Positions 12,244 through 20,411 of a DNA stretch of 32,492 nt are shown here, piece after piece. The DNA is taken from the NCBI GenBank assembly GCA_016213575.1, contig JACRAB010000326.1, forward strand, positions 1-32,492. The letters are read 5' to 3'. Position 1 is the stretch's first letter; every line of letters starts with the position of its first letter. The DNA is from Actinomycetota bacterium (GTDB lineage Bacteria; Actinomycetota; Actinomycetes; Actinomycetales; Kineosporiaceae). The notes beneath the pieces are model-generated. The model worked only from the letters and a program-made list of their open reading frames with translations, ran no database searches and had not been told where the DNA came from. Both the position numbers and the translations under genes were made by a program.

Positions 12244-12615
12244 TCAGCGTGCGGCGCGGCGCGCGTCGACCGCGGCGCGCACGAGAGCGACGGCCTCGTC
12301 GTCCCCGATGCCCAGCGCCGCGACCGCCCCGGCGTACGTGGCTGCGGCCGCCGCCGCCCGCCGGCGCACCGCGTCGCCCGACGCGGCGACGAGGGTGCCG
12401 CGCCGTCCCGCGGTCTCGACGAGCCCCGCCTCCTCGAGCTCGCGGTAGGCCCGGGCGACGGTGTTCGCGGCGAGCCCGAGGTCGGTCGCGAGGGTGCGGA
12501 CCGGCGGCAGCCGGGTGCCGACCGGCAGCGAGCCGTCGTCGATCCGGCCGGCGATCCCGGCCCGGACCTGCTCGTAGGGCGGGACGCTGCTCGACGGGTC
12601 GATCTCGACGATCAC
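12244..12615 (-). CDS. GntR family regulator, short YtrA type
   Basis: A 123-aa protein. The N-terminal winged helix is typical GntR: VPPYEQVRAGIAGRIDDGSL, VGTRLPPVRTLATDLGLAAN, TVARAYRELEEAGLVETAGR. After it there are only about 45 residues of helix (RRRAAAAAATYAGAVAALGI), so there is no large effector domain; this matches the YtrA subfamily, which usually controls adjacent membrane-transport genes. The GTG start (12615) overlaps the stop of the membrane-protein gene by 4 nt (GTGA), making it the last cistron of that operon. Inference: it represses or autoregulates the membrane proteins upstream. Confidence 0.92.
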   Translation of the reverse strand: MIVEIDPSSSVPPYEQVRAGIAGRIDDGSLPVGTRLPPVRTLATDLGLAANTVARAYRELEEAGLVETAGRRGTLVAASGDAVRRRAAAAAATYAGAVAALGIGDDEAVALVRAAVDARRAAR

Positions 12616-13451
12616 AGCGCCGATTCTCGCAGCCCGTCGGGCGACGGTGGCGCGCCCGCGAGCCAGGCCTGCGGCGGGGTCGCGTGGTGAAGCCGCCAGT
12701 CCTGCATCAGCGGTCTCGCCGACGAGGTGACCCACCCGTTGACGCCGATTCCCAGCACGAACAGCACCGTCAGGACTACGTCCGAACAGAACCATGACGG
12801 TGCACCGGTCCAGCGCTCGCCGTGCACCAGCCACCGGGCGGTGGCGATCGGCAGGACGGTCATGAGAGGCATCCCCAGGTCCTGCCGCGCGAGGGCTGCG
12901 TCGACGGCGCGCAGCACGGCCCCGTCCCCGATCGCCGGTGTTCCGATCACCTCCCGGACCGCGACGACGACCAGGCCTCCGAGCAGGAGCGGCACCAGCA
13001 GGGCGACAGCGGAGACCCACCCCGGTCTGCGCACGAGCAGGTCGACGGCGACCGCTGCCGAGACGCCGGCAGCCGCCGCCGGGACAGCGGCGATGCACCA
13101 CAGCGCCGTCCCGGGCCGTCGTCGTCCGGCGTCGCCGTCGGTGACCGCTGCGAGCCTGACGCGGACGGCGTCGTCGATGCGGCGTGACGTCAGCAGGGCC
13201 GTCCCACCGACGCAGACGATCACCAGTGCCAGCACCACCGCGCCGAGCACGGCGGCCGTGTCATCGCGGGCATCCGTGAACATGTCGACGCCCAACGAGA
13301 CGAGCATGACGGCCACGACCACGGTGCCCAGACCGGCGAACCGGTCCCAGCGCACGGCGCCCGGGTACCCGAGCCAGCCGCGATCGTCGACCCGGGCCCG
13401 GATCACCGCGAGGTCGAGGTCGGTCGGCGGCGGCAGGACCCGCGTCGTCAC
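12612..13451 (-). CDS. Multi-pass membrane protein, paralogue 3 of 3
   Basis: 279 aa, with about six hydrophobic segments (for example GLGTVVVAVMLVSLGVDMF, VLGAVVLALVIVCVGGTALL, VVLTVLFVLGIGVNGWV). No known catalytic motif is visible. It shares landmarks with the gene at 14508: an N-terminal DLAVIRARVDDRG, a loop RIDDAVRVRLAAVTDGD, a central AVLRAVDAALARQDLGMPL, and a C-terminal MQDWRLHHATPPQAWLAGAP. The track ORF of 613 aa is a shadow fused to this real gene; the true start is GTG at 13451, overlapping the previous stop by 4 nt (GTGA). It is in turn overlapped by the GntR gene. Confidence 0.82.
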   Translation of the reverse strand: MTTRVLPPPTDLDLAVIRARVDDRGWLGYPGAVRWDRFAGLGTVVVAVMLVSLGVDMFTDARDDTAAVLGAVVLALVIVCVGGTALLTSRRIDDAVRVRLAAVTDGDAGRRRPGTALWCIAAVPAAAAGVSAAVAVDLLVRRPGWVSAVALLVPLLLGGLVVVAVREVIGTPAIGDGAVLRAVDAALARQDLGMPLMTVLPIATARWLVHGERWTGAPSWFCSDVVLTVLFVLGIGVNGWVTSSARPLMQDWRLHHATPPQAWLAGAPPSPDGLRESAL

Positions 13452-14353
13452 GAGGCGGCCGGTGCCAGCGGCTGCGGCGCCGCGGGCGCGGCCCGGGGGA
13501 GCAGGTCGCCGTCCCCGTTCAGCCCGACGAGCAGGGCGACCTGGACGGCGAGCAGCAGACCCGCGGCGACGACCGCGAGCGTGAACCACCAGCCGGGCAG
13601 GCCGTGCCAGGCGAGGAGGTAGAGCACCGGGGCGGCCGCGGTGCCGGTGAGCCGCAGCCGCAGGTCGCGGCGCAGCAGGGCCGCGTCCGCCCAGCGGGCG
13701 AGCAGTCCGGTGCCGACGACGGGCGTCGTCGCCCGCACGGCGAGCAGCCGGACGTGCGTCGCGAGCAGCCCGAGCGGCCCGACGAGGGCGAAGGCCGTGA
13801 GCACCCCCGGGCGCTCGAGGAGGACGGCGACGGCCGAGACCGTGACGAGCACGAAGGCGACGGCGACCACGGCGGCGAGCAGCGTCGTGCCGCGGCCGAG
13901 CCGGTCGAGCAGGGTCTGCGCCGCCGACCGGCCGGGCATCCGGCGCAGGCTCTCGAACCGCCGCGCGGGCGGTGTCACCGTCATCGGCTGCGCGGCCGGG
14001 GCCGGGGCGTCCGCCCGGTCGGCGGGGACGTCCACGGCGGGCACGAACCGGTTGCGGACGAGGACGTCGACCCGCGCCGTCCGGCGTTCGGCCCGGATCC
14101 AGGCCCGGGCGCACACGAGACAGCCGACGGTGGCCGCGACACCGGCCGGGGCCGCACCGGACGGGTGCGCCCCGAGCCACGCGGTGGCGCCGACGGCCGC
14201 GGCGAGGCCGACAGGGCCGATGAGCAGCCCGGACGACGACGGGCCCGGGCCGTCGGTGCGGCCGGCGAGGACGGCGCGGCCCTCCACGCGGGCCCGCGTC
14301 ACCTCGACGTCGAGCGGCGCCTGGAGCGGCAGCGGGGCGGGCCCGCCGCTCAC
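13448..14353 (-). CDS. Multi-pass membrane protein, paralogue 2 of 3
   Basis: 301 aa with about six hydrophobic stretches (GLLIGPVGLAAAVGATAWLG; LLAAVVAVAFVLVTVSAVAV; LAVVAAGLLLAVQVALLVGL). It belongs to the same family as its two neighbours: LDVEVTRARVEGRA corresponds to their xLAxIRARVD start, ARVDVLVRNRFVPAVD to their xVDxAVRxRL loop, and LLARWADAALLRRDLRLRL to their AVDxAxxRxxL helix. It lacks the C-terminal AWLAG motif, ending instead in an Ala/Pro tail. The GTG start has GGAG 7 nt upstream, and it also overlaps the stop of a 31-codon upstream ORF. Confidence 0.8.
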   Translation of the reverse strand: MSGGPAPLPLQAPLDVEVTRARVEGRAVLAGRTDGPGPSSSGLLIGPVGLAAAVGATAWLGAHPSGAAPAGVAATVGCLVCARAWIRAERRTARVDVLVRNRFVPAVDVPADRADAPAPAAQPMTVTPPARRFESLRRMPGRSAAQTLLDRLGRGTTLLAAVVAVAFVLVTVSAVAVLLERPGVLTAFALVGPLGLLATHVRLLAVRATTPVVGTGLLARWADAALLRRDLRLRLTGTAAAPVLYLLAWHGLPGWWFTLAVVAAGLLLAVQVALLVGLNGDGDLLPRAAPAAPQPLAPAAS

Positions 14354-14445
14354 CGGCGGGCTCCGGCGCGACGGCGGTCCGCCTGCGCACCGGTCGCGGC
14401 GGGGGTGGTGGCGGACGGTGGCGTCGTCCTCCGGCGCTGCAGCAT
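14350..14445 (-). CDS. Possible 31-aa leaderless leader peptide
   Basis: ATG at 14445 lies exactly 6 nt after a TACGGT box on the minus strand and opens a 31-codon frame (MLQRRRTTPPSATTPAATGA...) that ends in TGA overlapping the GTG of the next gene (GTGA). The peptide is basic and Ala/Thr/Pro-rich with no recognisable domain. It could be a short leader ORF coupling translation to the membrane protein, or simply untranslated leader, since the next gene has its own GGAG ribosome site. Confidence 0.4.
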   Translation of the reverse strand: MLQRRRTTPPSATTPAATGAQADRRRAGARR

Positions 14446-14451
14446 GCGATC

Positions 14452-14457
14452 ACCGTA
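14452..14457 (-). promoter_or_regulatory. -10 box for the paralogue 2-paralogue 3-gntR operon
   Basis: TACGGT on the minus strand is identical to the box before the aminotransferase at 6911. It is 6 nt from ATG 14445 and about 100 nt from GTG 14353. Confidence 0.45.
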
Positions 14458-14507
14458 GAGCCGAACGGGGTCGGTGGCCCAGCCCTGCGGCTGCGGAGCG
14501 TGACGGG

Positions 14508-15371
14508 TCAGGCGGGTTCGCCCGCGAGCCAGGCCTTCGGTTCACGCGCGGTGACGAGCCGGTAGTCCTTGAACAGGGGTTCGTGAGCGAGTGCAGATTG
14601 GGCGCCGAGAGTCGCGGCGATGGTCGCGAGCGCGCAGAGGCGGAGCGGGAGCTCGTAGCGGGGCAGGTGGACGTCGGCATTCACCAGGAAGAGGAAGGTC
14701 GTCAGGGGGAGCGGCGTGAGGACGTCGAGCAGTCGGCGTCGCCGTACCGCCACGTCGACGGCATCGAGGATCTGTCCTGCCCCGACGGGCGCTGTCCGCA
14801 GCACCACGAGTCCCGCGACCGACGCTGCAAGGAGCACGGCGAGGAAGGCGATCAGGGGGAGCGGACCAGCGAGGCCATCCTCGCGCAGAGCAGCGGGCAG
14901 CGTCGTCATCAGAGCCAGCACGAGACCGACCGACCCGACCGCTCCGGCGGCGGCCACGGTGGCGCCGACCTTGCCCAGAGGGACCGTGCGACCGCGCTCT
15001 GCGGCCGCGGGCAGGTCGTCGGCCTCGAGTCGCGAGCGCACAGCGGTGTCGACGCGGCCCTGACGGACCAGGCCGACCAGGGCGACTCCCGTCCTGGCTC
15101 CGACCGCGAGAGTGAGCGCCCAGCGGGTCGCTGTCCCGGGCGGCCCGCCGGACACGAGGTCGACACTGAGGAGGGTCACGAGGACGGCCACGAGGACCAC
15201 CGTCATGACGACCCGGCCCCGCGGATGACGAGCGGCCGGTGTGTCCAGGGCGTCGACCCTGGCCCGGATCGCCGCGAGCTCGGTCGGCGTCGGCACCGGC
15301 AGGGCGGGCCGGTCGGGCATCAGCCACCACGGGCGGCGCGGCGCGGCACCCCCCGCCGCAGGCTGTGACAT
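14508..15371 (-). CDS. Multi-pass membrane protein, paralogue 1 of 3
   Basis: 287 aa. After a Pro-rich N-terminus comes ELAAIRARVDALD, then hydrophobic segments (VVMTVVLVAVLVTLLSVDLV; VGATVAAAGAVGSVGLVLAL; LIAFLAVLLAASVAGLVVLR; ALATIAATLGAQSAL) separated by a charged loop (GRVDTAVRSRLEADDL). The C-terminus FKDYRLVTAREPKAWLAGEP matches paralogue 3 closely. Function is unknown. ATG at 15371 follows TAGCCT by 6 nt on the minus strand with no ribosome site, so it is probably leaderless. It is divergent from hisD and separated by about 50 nt from the promoter of the next two paralogues. Codon use is slightly less GC-biased than the his genes. Confidence 0.82.
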   Translation of the reverse strand: MSQPAAGGAAPRRPWWLMPDRPALPVPTPTELAAIRARVDALDTPAARHPRGRVVMTVVLVAVLVTLLSVDLVSGGPPGTATRWALTLAVGARTGVALVGLVRQGRVDTAVRSRLEADDLPAAAERGRTVPLGKVGATVAAAGAVGSVGLVLALMTTLPAALREDGLAGPLPLIAFLAVLLAASVAGLVVLRTAPVGAGQILDAVDVAVRRRRLLDVLTPLPLTTFLFLVNADVHLPRYELPLRLCALATIAATLGAQSALAHEPLFKDYRLVTAREPKAWLAGEPA

Positions 15372-15441: not shown

Positions 15442-16800
15442 GTGATACGCCGACTCGACCTGCGTGGCCAGACCCTGCGTGCCCGGGCCCTGCGGGGCGT
15501 CGTCCCGCGGGCGGACGTCGACGTCGAGCACGCCCTCGACACCGTCCGGCCGATCGTCGCCGAGGTCCGGGACCGGGGCGTCGCCGGGGTGCTCGACCTG
15601 TGCGAGAAGTTCGACGGCGTCCGGCCCGCGCACCTGCGCGTCCCGGCCGAGGCCCTCGCGCGGGCGCTCGACACCCTCGACCCCGCCGTCCGGGCGGCGC
15701 TCGAGGAGTCGATCCTGCGGGCCCGTCGCGTGCACCGCGAGCAGCGCCGCGAGGACCACGCCACGCAGGTCGTGCCCGGCGGTGTCGTCACCGAGCGCTG
15801 GGTCCCGGTCGGCCGGGTCGGGCTGTACGTGCCCGGCGGCCGCGCCGTCTACCCGAGCAGCGTCGTCATGAACGTCGTGCCCGCCCAGGAGGCCGGTGTC
15901 GAGTCGCTCGCCGTCGCGAGCCCGCCGCAGCGGGACAACCCGACCGCCTTCGAGGGGCTGCCGCACCCGACGATCCTCGCGGCGTGCGCGCTGCTCGGCG
16001 TCGAGGAGGTCTGGGCGGTCGGCGGTGCGCAGGCGGTGGCGATGTTCGCCTACGGTCTCGCCGACCCGGACGCCGACCCGGACGGCGTGCCCGCGCTGCT
16101 CTGCGAGCCCGTCGATCTCGTGACCGGCCCCGGAAACATCTACGTCACGGCGGCCAAGCGGCTGCTCAAGGGCCTCATCGGGATCGACGCCGAGGCCGGC
16201 CCGACCGAGATCGCGATCCTCGCCGACGACACCGCCGACGCCCGGCACGTCGCCGCCGACCTCATCAGCCAGGCCGAGCACGACCCGATGGCCGCCGCCG
16301 TCCTCGTCACCGACTCCGAGACGCTCGCTGCCGCCGTGGAGGCCGAGCTCGAGGAGCAGGTCGCCCGCACCAAGCACAGCGAGCGGGTCACGACCGCGCT
16401 GTCCGGCCCGCAGTCCGGCATCGTCCTCGTCGACGACGTCGACGCCGGGCTCGAGGTCGTCGACGCCTACGCCGCCGAACACCTCGAGGTGCACACCCGG
16501 GACGCCGGCTCGGTCGCTGCCCGGGTGAGGAACGCCGGCGCGATCTTCGTCGGTGCCTACGCCCCCGTGAGCCTCGGCGACTACTGCGCCGGGTCGAACC
16601 ACGTGCTGCCGACCGGTGGCTGCTCGTGCCACTCCAGCGGCCTGTCGGTGCAGTCGTTCCTGCGCGGGATCCACGTCGTCTCCTACGACGAGACCGCGCT
16701 GCGCGACGTCGCGCACCACGTCGTGACCCTGGCGAACGCCGAGGACCTGCCCGCGCACGGCCAGGCCGTCGAGGCCCGCTTCCCGGACGGCATCGGCTGA
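15442..16800 (+). CDS. hisD: Histidinol dehydrogenase (HisD)
   Basis: NAD-dependent zinc enzyme that oxidises L-histidinol to L-histidine in the last two steps of histidine synthesis. 452 aa. The zinc ligands and catalytic residues are all visible and share a constant +20 offset from the E. coli numbering I recall: Gln277 and His280 (SQAEHDP), Glu346-His347 (AAEHLE), Asp380 ([15 protein letters not shown]) and His439 ([10 protein letters not shown]). [19 protein letters not shown] and [12 protein letters not shown] are strong family signatures. GTG 15442 is placed by the -10 box 7 nt upstream. It heads the his region but is separated from hisC by three unrelated genes. Confidence 0.98.
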
Positions 16801-16823: not shown

Positions 16824-17579
16824 GTGACCGCCCGGGTCGCCGTCCCCGCCGGGCTGCCCGCCCGTTGCCCCGCGGACGACGGCCGGCATACCCGGCTCGG
16901 CTGGCGGCCCCGGATGGTGCTCACCGAGGTCAACCGCGACCTCGACGAGACGCCGCCGGCCTGGGCGGCGCCCGCGGTCGCCCGTCGCCGCGCCCTGCGC
17001 GACCTGCGGCGCACCGCGAAGGCGTTCGGGGCCGACGGCATCGTCGGCGTGACCTTCGAGCCGGACGGCGACCACGTCGTCGGACGCGGGGTCACGGTGC
17101 GGCGCCGCCGGGTCCCGGTGGCCGGCCTCACCGACGAGGTGTTCACGACGCACCTGCCCCTCGACGCCGCCGACCTCGCGGTGGAGGCCGGGCTGGCGCC
17201 CCGCCGCGTCGTCCTCAGCGCCTGCCGCGCGGCGCTCCACGACCCCGCGGACGCCTGGCCGGAACCGGCGGTCCCGCAGCCCGGCGAGGAGCCGTCGCTC
17301 GACCACCTCGTCGGCCTCGTCCACGACCTCGCCGCCGAGGTCGGGCGGGCCGCCGGCCGCCGGCGCGGCCCGAGCACGGTCCTCGTCGGCGCGGTCGACG
17401 TCCGCTCCGGGCTGGAGCCGTGCAGCGGCGCCGGGAGCGAGCCGGACGCCGCCGTCGTACTGCTCGCGACGGCGACGGTGCTCGCCGGCTCGGTCGACCG
17501 GTCGCCGGCCGCCCGGGACGTCGCGCACGGTCTTGGCCGGTTCGTCGTGCCGATGGCCGCCGGGGCGGGGTCCTGGTGA
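16824..17579 (+). CDS. Unknown protein with YbjQ-like modules (cassette gene 1)
   Basis: About 251 aa; function unknown. It contains RLGWRPRMVLTEVN followed by ARRRALRDLRRTAKAFGADG and IVGVTFEPDGDHVV. This resembles the YbjQ/heavy-metal-binding-domain pattern of a helix ending LGAxxVVGV followed by strands. A second, more degenerate copy starts at LPLDAADLAVEAGLAPRRVV and ends in DAAVVLLATATVLAG. The start is uncertain: GTG 16824 has only a weak GAGCGG upstream, while a CTG at 16797 would overlap the hisD stop. The stop overlaps the next start by 4 nt (GTGA). It is probably co-transcribed with hisD. Confidence 0.72.
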   Translation: MTARVAVPAGLPARCPADDGRHTRLGWRPRMVLTEVNRDLDETPPAWAAPAVARRRALRDLRRTAKAFGADGIVGVTFEPDGDHVVGRGVTVRRRRVPVAGLTDEVFTTHLPLDAADLAVEAGLAPRRVVLSACRAALHDPADAWPEPAVPQPGEEPSLDHLVGLVHDLAAEVGRAAGRRRGPSTVLVGAVDVRSGLEPCSGAGSEPDAAVVLLATATVLAGSVDRSPAARDVAHGLGRFVVPMAAGAGSW

Positions 17580-18358
17580 GCCGCGCCCCGAAGGCCGCCG
17601 CCTTCGTCGCGGCGCTCGGCGTCGACGACCTGCTCCTCACCGGGCTGCTCGGGCTGCGACCGGTGGGCGTCGTCCTCGGCCACAGCCTGCACGCGGCCGA
17701 CCGGGTCGAGCCGGCCGCGCTCACCGCCGCGCAGCAGGCGACGGACGACGCCGGCCAGCCCGGCGAGGACGTGGTCCGCACGACGGCCCTGGAGTCGGCG
17801 TGGGCGCTGGGCCTGGCGCGGCTGCTCGCCCAGGCCGAGGACCTCGGGGCGGACGGCGTCCTCGGCGTCGAGCTCACGGTGGCCACCGTCGAACGCGGCA
17901 CCCGGGTCGCGGTGACCGCGCACGGCACCGCCGTCCGCACGGCCGACGACTTCGACGGCAGCTGGCGCACCGACAGCACCGCGCCGTTCACGACCACCCT
18001 GTCCGGCCGGGACGTCTGGCTCCTCGCGAAGACCGGCTACCGGCCGCTCGGCATCGTCCTCGGTGCCTCGACCGGCCCGGCCGAGGACCCGGGCGACCTC
18101 ACGGCGGACGGCGAGCACGGGGCGGCGACCCAGGCGCTCTACGACGCCCGCGACCGCGCGCTCGCGCGGGTGCGCGCCGAGGCCGCGGCGCTCGACGCGG
18201 ACGGCGTCGTCGCCCTGCGGTTCGATGGCGTCCCGCCGCCGCCCGGCGCCCAGGACGTCCGGGTCGTCGCGTGGGGGACGGCGGTCCGCCGGCTCCCCGA
18301 CCACACCCCGCCGGGGGAGCCCGACATCGTCCTGCCGCTGCTCGGAGGCCGCCCGTGA
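17576..18358 (+). CDS. Protein with two YbjQ-like modules (cassette gene 2)
   Basis: 260 aa. Two copies of a module are clear. Copy 1: VDDLLLTGLLGLRPVGVVLG, then LARLLAQAEDLGADGVLGVE and VTAHGTAVR. Copy 2: GRDVWLLAKTGYRPLGIVLG, then ALARVRAEAAALDADGVVAL and VVAWGTAVR. The helix-LGADGVxGVE-strand-xAxGTAV arrangement resembles YbjQ/DUF74 (Pfam heavy-metal-binding domain), which forms pentamers; no role in metal binding is proved by this. There is no signal peptide or membrane segment, so it is probably cytoplasmic. It is joined by GTGA overlaps to both neighbouring cassette genes. SSV-like or secreted alternatives are not supported. Confidence 0.78.
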   Translation: MSRAPKAAAFVAALGVDDLLLTGLLGLRPVGVVLGHSLHAADRVEPAALTAAQQATDDAGQPGEDVVRTTALESAWALGLARLLAQAEDLGADGVLGVELTVATVERGTRVAVTAHGTAVRTADDFDGSWRTDSTAPFTTTLSGRDVWLLAKTGYRPLGIVLGASTGPAEDPGDLTADGEHGAATQALYDARDRALARVRAEAAALDADGVVALRFDGVPPPPGAQDVRVVAWGTAVRRLPDHTPPGEPDIVLPLLGGRP

Positions 18359-19218
18359 CCGTCGACGACAACGGCGCGGCGCAGGCGGCGACCGCCGCAC
18401 CGGACGACGAGGCCGACCTGGCCGCGACCGTGCTGCGGCTCGTCGAGGAGCTCGAGACCCGGCTGCCGCCGGCCGTCGTCCAGGTCGGGCGCGACCCCGG
18501 CGTCGGCGACCGCCTCGCCGGCCGGCCCGGCCCGGTGACGGGCGTCGTCGTCGACACCGGCGAGGGCCGCCTCCTCGTCCTCGACGCCGGGCCGCGCGGC
18601 TTCGCGTGCACGAGCGCGACCCGGGTCGGCGGGGTCGTCGTGGCCCGCCGCCGGATGCGGCTCAGCGCCTGGCTCGCCCGGCTCGACGCGTTCCTCGCCG
18701 CCCGCGAGGAGGAGACCGCGATCGCCGAGGCCGCCGCCCAGCGGGTCCTCGTGACCCTCGGCTCCGCCGAACCCTCGGACGCCCTCACCGTGCACGCCGA
18801 CTCCCTCGACGAGGACCTCGCCGACCTGCCCGCGCACGTCGAGGGCCGCGTCCCCGCGGACGTCGTCGACGCCGTCCGGCGGATCTGCGCCGAGCTCCGC
18901 GAGACCCACGACCGGCTGCCGGCCGGCGCCTCGCACGGCCACCTCGTGCACCGGGTCGCGACCGACTACCTGCCGACGACGCTGCGGATCTACCTCGAGC
19001 TGCCGCAGGAGTGGGCCCAGCAGTACTCCGGCTTCGGCGGCCGGACGGCGCTCGACATCCTCCGCGAGCAGCTCGACATCCTCGAGATCGGCGTCCGCGA
19101 GCTGCACCGCGCCGTCCTCGAGGACGACGGCGAGCGCCTCCTCGCGAACGGCGCCTTCCTCGCCGACCGCTTCGGGAACGCCGACTCCGACCTGCACCTG
19201 CCGGACCACACGGACTGA
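18355..19218 (+). CDS. Unknown mostly helical protein (cassette gene 3)
   Basis: 287 aa, no recognised family. The N-terminus is acidic and helical ([20 protein letters not shown]), the middle has a small beta-rich part ([20 protein letters not shown]), and the C-terminal half is helical with a notable [20 protein letters not shown] followed by [20 protein letters not shown]. The YLPTTLxxYL motif recalls XpaC/TelA-type proteins found near tellurite-resistance genes, but this is weak similarity by eye. GGAGG lies 6 nt before the GTG, which also overlaps the previous stop (GTGA), so translation should be efficient. It is soluble, with no signal peptide. It ends 68 nt before hisC, which has its own promoter. 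Confidence 0.7.
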
Positions 19219-19286: not shown

Positions 19287-20411
19287 GTGCCTCCCACCAC
19301 CTCTGCGGACTCCGCCGCGGACACCCTCGCGCGCCTCCCGCTGCGGGACGACCTGCGCGGCAAGACGCCCTACGGCGCCCCGCAGCTCGCCGTCCCGACG
19401 CGGCTGAACACCAACGAGAACAGCTACGACGTGCCCGTCGAGGTCGTCGCGGCGATCGTGGACGCCGTCCGCAAGGAGGCCGTCCACCTCAACCGCTACC
19501 CGGACCGCGAGTTCACCGCCCTGCGCGAGGACCTCGCCATCTCCCTCGGGCACGACGTGACGCCCGCCCAGGTCTGGGCGGGCAACGGCAGCAACGAGGT
19601 GCTCCAGCACATCGTCCAGGCCTTCGGCGGCCCCGGCCGGACGGCGCTCGGCTTCACGCCGTCCTACTCGATGCACCCGATCATCTCGACCGGCACCGGC
19701 ACGGCCTGGGTCGACGGGCTCCGCGGCGCGCCGTCCGGCGTCTTCGACCTCACCGCCGAGCACGCCGCGGCACAGGTCGAGGAGCACGACCCCGACGTCG
19801 TCTTCGTCTGCTCCCCGAACAACCCGACCGGCACCTCGGTCGGCCTGGACGTCGTCGAGGCCGTCTACGAGCGCAGCCGCGGGATCGTCGTCGTCGACGA
19901 GGCGTACGTCGAGTTCTCCCGGCCCGGGACGCCGAGCGCCCTGACCCTGCTGCCCGGCCGCGAGCGGCTCGTCGTCTCCCGGACGATGAGCAAGGCGTTC
20001 GCGCTCGCCGGCGCCCGGGTCGGCTACCTCGCCGCCGACCCCGCGGTGTGCGACGCGTTCCGGCTCGTCCGGCTGCCCTACCACCTGTCGGCCCTGACCC
20101 AGGCGGCCGCACGGGCGGCGCTCTGGCACGCCGACGTCCTGCTCTCGACCGTCGAGGCGATCAAGGAGCAGCGCGACCGGATCGTCGCGACGCTGCCGTC
20201 GTTCGGCCTGCTGCCGGTCGCGAGCGACGCGAACTTCGTGCTCTTCGGCGGGCTGGACGACGAGAAGCGGGTCTGGCGCGCGCTGCTCGAGTACGGCGTG
20301 CTCGTGCGGGACGTCGGGATCGCCCACCACCTGCGGGTCACCGCCGGCACCCCCGAGGAGACGACCTCGTTCCTCGACGCCCTCGAGTCGGTCATGGAGG
20401 CCAGCCGATGA
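19287..20411 (+). CDS. hisC: Histidinol-phosphate aminotransferase (HisC)
   Basis: PLP enzyme that converts imidazole acetol phosphate and glutamate to histidinol phosphate. 374 aa, of normal family length. The PLP lysine is Lys236 in [18 protein letters not shown]. Other signatures are [41 protein letters not shown] and [15 protein letters not shown] 19287 is supported by the TAGACT box 6 nt upstream and the lack of a ribosome site, so it is probably leaderless. The stop overlaps the hisB start (ATGA), coupling the two. Confidence 0.97.

What the first reader, a model, noticed from the sequence alone, without database searches (positions are those of the whole stretch)
16824..19218. Three-gene translationally coupled cassette with YbjQ-like modules inserted between hisD and hisC
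Three genes with no histidine function, each linked by a 4-nt GTGA overlap, sit between hisD and an independently promoted hisC. Two carry YbjQ-like repeated domains and the third is an unrecognised helical protein. Strict coupling suggests that the three products form one complex or pathway. I know no described system with this composition, so it is my main candidate for something new.
Basis: partly seen in the sequence, partly recalled or inferred. Interest (0 to 1): 0.7.

Follow-up and report, generated by a model that had tools for sequence, protein, structure and literature searches.

The report
Tandem-YbjQ module inside histidine operon
Three uncharacterised genes sitting in an actinobacterial histidine operon turn out to be a divergent, rearranged copy of a small gene set found across several bacterial phyla, with one protein fused to a part borrowed from a cell-envelope-stress operon, so the set is probably an undescribed membrane-stress apparatus.

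Summary
The three genes are real (16824-17579, 17576-18358, 18355-19218). Their GTGA overlaps and their position between hisD and hisC hold in all three genomes of the genus, and all three are under purifying selection. Sister genera have hisD and hisC abutting, so the trio is a genus-level insertion. B is a clear tandem-YbjQ protein (Pfam and predicted fold); A is a weak, degenerate one. C is a fusion: residues 16-132 match a ~130-aa partner (S) that sits beside tandem-YbjQ genes in 64 of 80 distant loci (Actinobacteriota, Chloroflexota, Bacillota, Armatimonadota), usually S-Ya-Yb; residues 150-277 match the protein encoded between telA and an AAA ATPase gene in related genomes. In 14 of the 80 loci the module adjoins a PspA/IM30 gene. 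The mycobacterial version is Rv1762c (tandem YbjQ) with Rv1761c (DUF5073); Rv1762c was reported in ultracentrifuged nanocompartment preparations. Best reading: a widespread, apparently undescribed S + tandem-YbjQ module, here rearranged and wired to TelA-type machinery, acting as a multimeric platform in envelope-stress response. Composition is well supported; function is inferred. The coupling itself is ordinary (10 of 28 same-strand pairs), and no independent hisC promoter was found.

The parts
16824..17579 (+). Gene A, 251 aa, degenerate tandem-YbjQ protein; sub-threshold YbjQ match at residues 53-79 (16980-17060)
   Evidence: Pfam PF01906 E=0.0074, 17.3 bits, below cut-off; hhalign to the Ya family score 57.6, P=6e-8, and to Yb 44.8; dN/dS 0.36-0.42
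17576..18358 (+). Gene B, 260 aa, two YbjQ domains (about residues 10-123 and 138-240)
   Evidence: Pfam PF01906 E=6.5e-17, two stretches; tandem-YbjQ profile E=1.2e-56 in a whole-genome search; AlphaFold model pLDDT 89.4, pTM 0.85, best PDB matches 1y2i and 1vr4
18355..19218 (+). Gene C, 287 aa, fusion protein
   Evidence: Two separate profile matches; model with an alpha-beta5-alpha N-terminal domain and an all-helical C-terminal domain
18400..18750 (+). C residues 16-132: homologue of the ~130-aa partner (S) of tandem-YbjQ operons
   Evidence: hhalign score 60.9, P=1.1e-9, 20 shuffles at most 18.3; a whole-genome search with the C profile hit the S gene next to Ya/Yb in G167, residues 12-142, E=3.5e-8
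18802..19185 (+). C residues 150-277: homologue of the protein encoded between telA and an AAA ATPase gene in related genomes
   Evidence: About 40% identity, E down to 1.6e-21; hhalign score 138, P=4e-21, 20 shuffles at most 20.3; neighbours TelA PF05816 and AAA PF00004
15442..16800 (+). hisD, upstream neighbour (23 nt between its stop and A)
   Evidence: TIGR00069, 449.6 bits
19287..20411 (+). hisC, downstream neighbour (68 nt after C)
   Evidence: PRK03317, 556 bits

Best explanation
The trio is a divergent, rearranged copy of a widespread three-part module: a small alpha/beta partner protein (S) and two tandem-YbjQ proteins (Ya, Yb). Here the order is YbjQ-YbjQ-S instead of S-Ya-Yb, and S carries a C-terminal helical domain otherwise found as the product of the gene between telA and an AAA ATPase gene. 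The module was inserted into the his operon in the ancestor of this genus. Single-domain YbjQ proteins form pentamers (published). Most likely A and B assemble into larger ring or particle-like homo- or hetero-oligomers in the cytoplasm, with S capping or recruiting them, and the complex serves the envelope-stress response together with PspA-type (elsewhere) or TelA-type (here, through the fused domain) partners. Shown: gene structure, conservation, homologies, the fusion, module recurrence and PspA adjacency elsewhere. Inferred: assembly, membrane role, and that the fused domain docks on TelA or its ATPase.
For: S beside tandem-YbjQ genes in 64 of 80 distant loci, most within 160 bp, canonical S-Ya-Yb order. 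C is an S + TelA-companion fusion. TelA PF05816 and AAA ATPase neighbours of the companion. PspA/IM30 next to the module in 14 of 80 loci, checked by Pfam in three (two over the cut-off); a Band-7 gene near one. B model matches solved YbjQ structures and, more weakly, RcsF (an envelope-stress sensor). YbjQ homopentamers: PMC2954204. Rv1762c is consistently found in ultracentrifuged Mtb nanocompartment preparations: PMC8635971. A disruption mutant of the Listeria telA-like gene is more nisin-sensitive, as cited in PMC12791056. Purifying selection.
Against: No assembly or stress phenotype was tested. No TelA or PspA gene lies beside the trio in the window, and the own genome was not searched for them. 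Most of the 80 loci, chiefly actinobacterial ones, lack adjacent PspA. A and B group with each other rather than with the Ya and Yb slots (support 0.87, long branches), so one-to-one slot identity is not shown. The C model found no confident PDB match. Location in the his operon could mean a role unrelated to the envelope.
Confidence: 0.5

Rival explanations
1. Metal-handling complex: the YbjQ proteins bind and buffer heavy metals, as the Pfam name suggests, and TelA-type parts give toxic-anion resistance.
For: Family name of PF01906; TelA is called a toxic anion resistance protein; a metal role was suggested for Rv1762c in PMC9846648.
Against: B has no cysteine at all, and the histidine motif kept in relatives (YH) is lost in its second domain. 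The metal label is a putative family name; no binding data were found.
Confidence: 0.12
2. Histidine-pathway accessory proteins: the trio regulates or scaffolds his enzymes, explaining its place between hisD and hisC.
For: 23 nt from hisD, same strand, conserved in all three genomes of the genus.
Against: Sister genera lack it with his genes intact; in the distant loci examined the module was not seen with his genes.
Confidence: 0.08
3. Neutral passenger: a module fragment that landed in an operon and is decaying; A is degenerate and the fusion is accidental.
For: A falls below the YbjQ cut-off and its dN/dS (0.36-0.42) is several times that of hisD (0.05-0.08).
Against: All three frames are open in three species, B and C dN/dS is 0.20-0.30, and overlaps and fusion are kept.
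Confidence: 0.1
4. The small partner is a chaperone for membrane-linked assemblies (CesT/Tir-like), and the YbjQ proteins are its clients in a PSP-like system.
For: CesT/Tir-like proteins pair with PspA and Band-7 in PSP operons (PMC11237479); the S-type domain is predicted alpha-beta5-alpha; PspA adjacency.
Against: No CesT structure was among the listed matches of the C model; a domain-only search was not possible.
Confidence: 0.15

Closest known systems
Canonical S-Ya-Yb tandem-YbjQ operon (e.g. Conexibacter/Solirubrobacterales, Ktedonobacteria, Sulfoacidibacillus loci L090-L169; no published description found)
   Same: Same three protein kinds, adjacent, same strand
   Different: Gene order here is Y-Y-S; C carries an extra TelA-companion domain; A is degenerate; located in the his operon
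Mycobacterial Rv1762c-Rv1761c pair (tandem YbjQ + DUF5073)
   Same: Tandem YbjQ and small partner, overlapping genes; profile link of DUF5073 to S (score 51.5, shuffles at most 20.5)
   Different: Only one YbjQ gene, no fusion; direct profile link of DUF5073 to C not significant
TelA - companion - AAA ATPase operon (also present in G001 and G002)
   Same: C residues 150-277 homologous to the companion
   Different: TelA and the AAA ATPase are not beside the trio; the companion has no S domain
Single-domain YbjQ (PF01906; 1y2i, 1vr4, 2gtc)
   Same: Fold of each B half
   Different: Tandem, divergent, no cysteine in B
PSP/PspA envelope-stress systems
   Same: The module adjoins PspA in 14 of 80 distant loci
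   Different: No PspA by the trio; YbjQ is not named in PMC11237479, a survey of PSP partners (full-text count 0)

Membership tests
YbjQ family (PF01906) | Score above the Pfam cut-off (23 bits), protein B | tested here: met
   B 62.5 bits with two stretches
YbjQ family (PF01906) | Score above the Pfam cut-off (23 bits), protein A | tested here: not met
   A only 17.3 bits; profile-profile match to the Ya family is significant
YbjQ family (PF01906) | YbjQ fold | tested here: met
   B model, pLDDT 89.4, best PDB matches 1y2i, 1vr4, 3qkb; A not folded
YbjQ family (PF01906) | Pentameric assembly | not testable with these tools
   Known for 1y2i/1vr4 (PMC2954204); not tested for A/B
S + tandem-YbjQ module | S-family protein adjacent to tandem-YbjQ genes, same strand | tested here: met
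   C residues 16-132 vs S, score 60.9 against shuffles at most 18.3; adjacency in the window
S + tandem-YbjQ module | Order S-Ya-Yb with A=Ya, B=Yb | tested here: not met
   Order is Y-Y-S; A and B pair with each other in the tree
TelA operon | telA and AAA ATPase genes flank the companion | tested here: not met
   Neighbours are B and hisC
XpaC (PF10112) | Pfam match | tested here: not met
   No match for C or companions; 0 of 28 relatives carry the family
DUF5073 (PF16817) | Pfam match | tested here: not met
   No match for C; mycobacterial partner 1.7e-64, S of L084 2.7e-4 below cut-off
PSP system | PspA gene in the locus | tested here: not met
   None seen among genes flanking the trio; the own genome was not searched for PspA

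The most novel reading that the evidence does not exclude
An undescribed, cross-phylum protein assembly: tandem-YbjQ proteins form large particles or stacked pentameric rings, gated by the S partner, acting as a cytoplasmic envelope-stress platform that plugs into PspA in some lineages and, through the fused domain, into TelA/AAA machinery here. Rv1762c in the Mtb nanocompartment fraction would then be its own particle (or a shell partner), not contamination.
Probability: 0.22. Interest if true: 0.75.

Novelty: new variant of a known kind. Interest (0 to 1): 0.55.

Why it matters
YbjQ/DUF74 proteins have solved structures and occur widely, but no function was found for them here. Finding that their tandem versions travel with one specific small partner across several phyla, next to PspA in some, and fused here to a TelA-operon domain, gives the family a testable context (envelope stress) and defined partners. 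It also offers a concrete hypothesis for Rv1762c/Rv1761c in mycobacteria.

Tried and rejected
First alignments A1 and A2 used the wrong strand for G002 loci and were redone. XpaC as the identity of the C-terminal domain: no Pfam support. PDB sequence search and fold search with C: nothing convincing. Promoter scan for hisC: nothing. TelA-companion search in the 80 module loci: none, so the fusion link is specific to this genus so far. A tree to assign A and B to Ya and Yb slots: unresolved, A and B group together on long branches. Paper searches for a published tandem-YbjQ or YbjQ-TelA system found none.

Full report
Observation. Three + strand ORFs lie between hisD (15442-16800) and hisC (19287-20411): A 16824-17579, B 17576-18358 and C 18355-19218, with GTGA overlaps. 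They are real genes: all three are open and at the same place in the two other genomes of the genus, with the same overlaps, at 88-95% protein identity, and dN/dS is 0.36-0.42 (A), 0.23-0.30 (B), 0.20-0.22 (C) against 0.05-0.08 for hisD. The overlaps are not unusual: 10 of 28 same-strand neighbour pairs in this window overlap by 4 nt. An independent hisC promoter is not supported.

Insertion. In sister genera (L039, L046, L048) hisC follows hisD directly, overlapping or within 100 bp. A tandem-YbjQ profile finds strong hits (E below 1e-50) only in the three genomes of the window's genus among 78 relatives. The trio is therefore a genus-level insertion; gain by transfer is likely but not proven.

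B and A. B scores 62.5 bits to PF01906 over two stretches, matches a profile of 83 tandem-YbjQ rows (one of them B itself) at E=1.2e-56, and its AlphaFold model (pLDDT 89.4, pTM 0.85) matches solved YbjQ structures and, more weakly, RcsF. A is below the Pfam cut-off but aligns with the Ya family (score 57.6, P=6e-8), so it is best read as a degenerate tandem-YbjQ protein. In a tree A and B group together (0.87) and not with the Ya and Yb slots; long branches make this undecided.

C. Pfam, NCBIfam and PDB sequence searches find nothing convincing. Profile comparison splits C in two. Residues 16-132 match the S family (score 60.9; 20 shuffles at most 18.3) and residues 150-277 match the TelA companion (138.4; at most 20.3); profiles of A and B against S, and of C against Ya and Yb, are at noise level. 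Independently, a whole-genome search with the C profile hit the S gene next to Ya and Yb in G167. The companion lies between TelA (PF05816) and an AAA ATPase in G001, G002 and many relatives. The C model (pLDDT 78.7, pTM 0.53) shows an alpha-beta5-alpha N-terminal domain and an all-helical C-terminal domain; its alignment had depth only over the N-terminal domain.

The module elsewhere. A profile of tandem-YbjQ proteins found at least 573 related stretches in genome contigs; the best 80 cover Actinobacteriota (mostly Solirubrobacterales), Chloroflexota, Bacillota, Armatimonadota and Dormibacterota by record title. 64 of 80 loci have S beside a tandem-YbjQ gene, nearly all within 160 bp; 59 show at least two YbjQ ORFs; of the 16 without S, most have the YbjQ ORF at the contig edge and five (L102, L108, L111, L119, L123) appear truly to lack it. 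In 14 loci a PspA/IM30 gene adjoins the module (11 downstream on the same strand, 3 upstream on the opposite strand). In Actinobacteriota the family is sparse: 10 of 297 genomes.

Mycobacteria. L087-L089 carry a tandem-YbjQ gene and a DUF5073 gene that abut or overlap; the latter is the Rv1761c family (2k3m, E=1.2e-54). The YbjQ partner corresponds to Rv1762c by size, DUF74 annotation and gene number (inference, its sequence was not fetched). DUF5073 is linked to S by profile (51.5; shuffles at most 20.5), though not directly to C. Rv1762c was consistently present in Mtb nanocompartment preparations made by ultracentrifugation (PMC8635971). That fits, but does not prove, that tandem-YbjQ proteins form large particles.

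Function. Shown: composition, fusion, recurrence, adjacency. Inferred: an oligomeric platform in envelope stress. Support comes from two separate contexts, PspA adjacency elsewhere and the TelA-operon domain here; a disruption mutant of the Listeria TelA-like gene has raised nisin susceptibility (cited in PMC12791056), YbjQ is pentameric (PMC2954204), and RcsF, a structural relative, senses envelope stress (established knowledge). The heavy-metal reading is weak: B has no cysteine.

Novelty. No held paper describes this module or its link to TelA or PspA; the library is not complete. The parts are known families, so I call it a new variant of a known kind, with an apparently undescribed cross-phylum module behind it.

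Noticed in passing
L133-L136, L139, L145, L147, L156, L158, L162, L168 (downstream of Yb); L149, L157, L159 (divergent): PspA/IM30 genes directly adjoin the S-Ya-Yb module in 14 of 80 loci, mostly Bacillota.
   Followed up: partly
L087:8508-8894, L088, L089: Mycobacterial partner is DUF5073/Rv1761c, whose solved entry 2k3m came from membrane-protein work (recalled, not checked), while the homologous domain of C is predicted as a soluble-looking alpha-beta5-alpha domain; the two pictures should be reconciled.
   Followed up: partly
window 12612-15371, - strand: Three adjacent membrane-type proteins with a shared N-terminal motif (PxPTxxDLAxIRARVD-like), probable paralogues, next to a GntR-like regulator at 12244-12615 and divergent from hisD; the two scanned had no confident Pfam match.
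   Followed up: no
L086:5068-6036: A Band-7/SPFH gene lies about 0.9 kb from a module with three tandem-YbjQ genes.
   Followed up: no
L040-L045 (hisD flanks of relatives): In the genus of G004/G008-G012 hisD is followed by a DUF1697-like gene and a TetR-type regulator (read by eye) instead of hisC, so the hisD-hisC junction is broken in a second, different way in this family.
   Followed up: no
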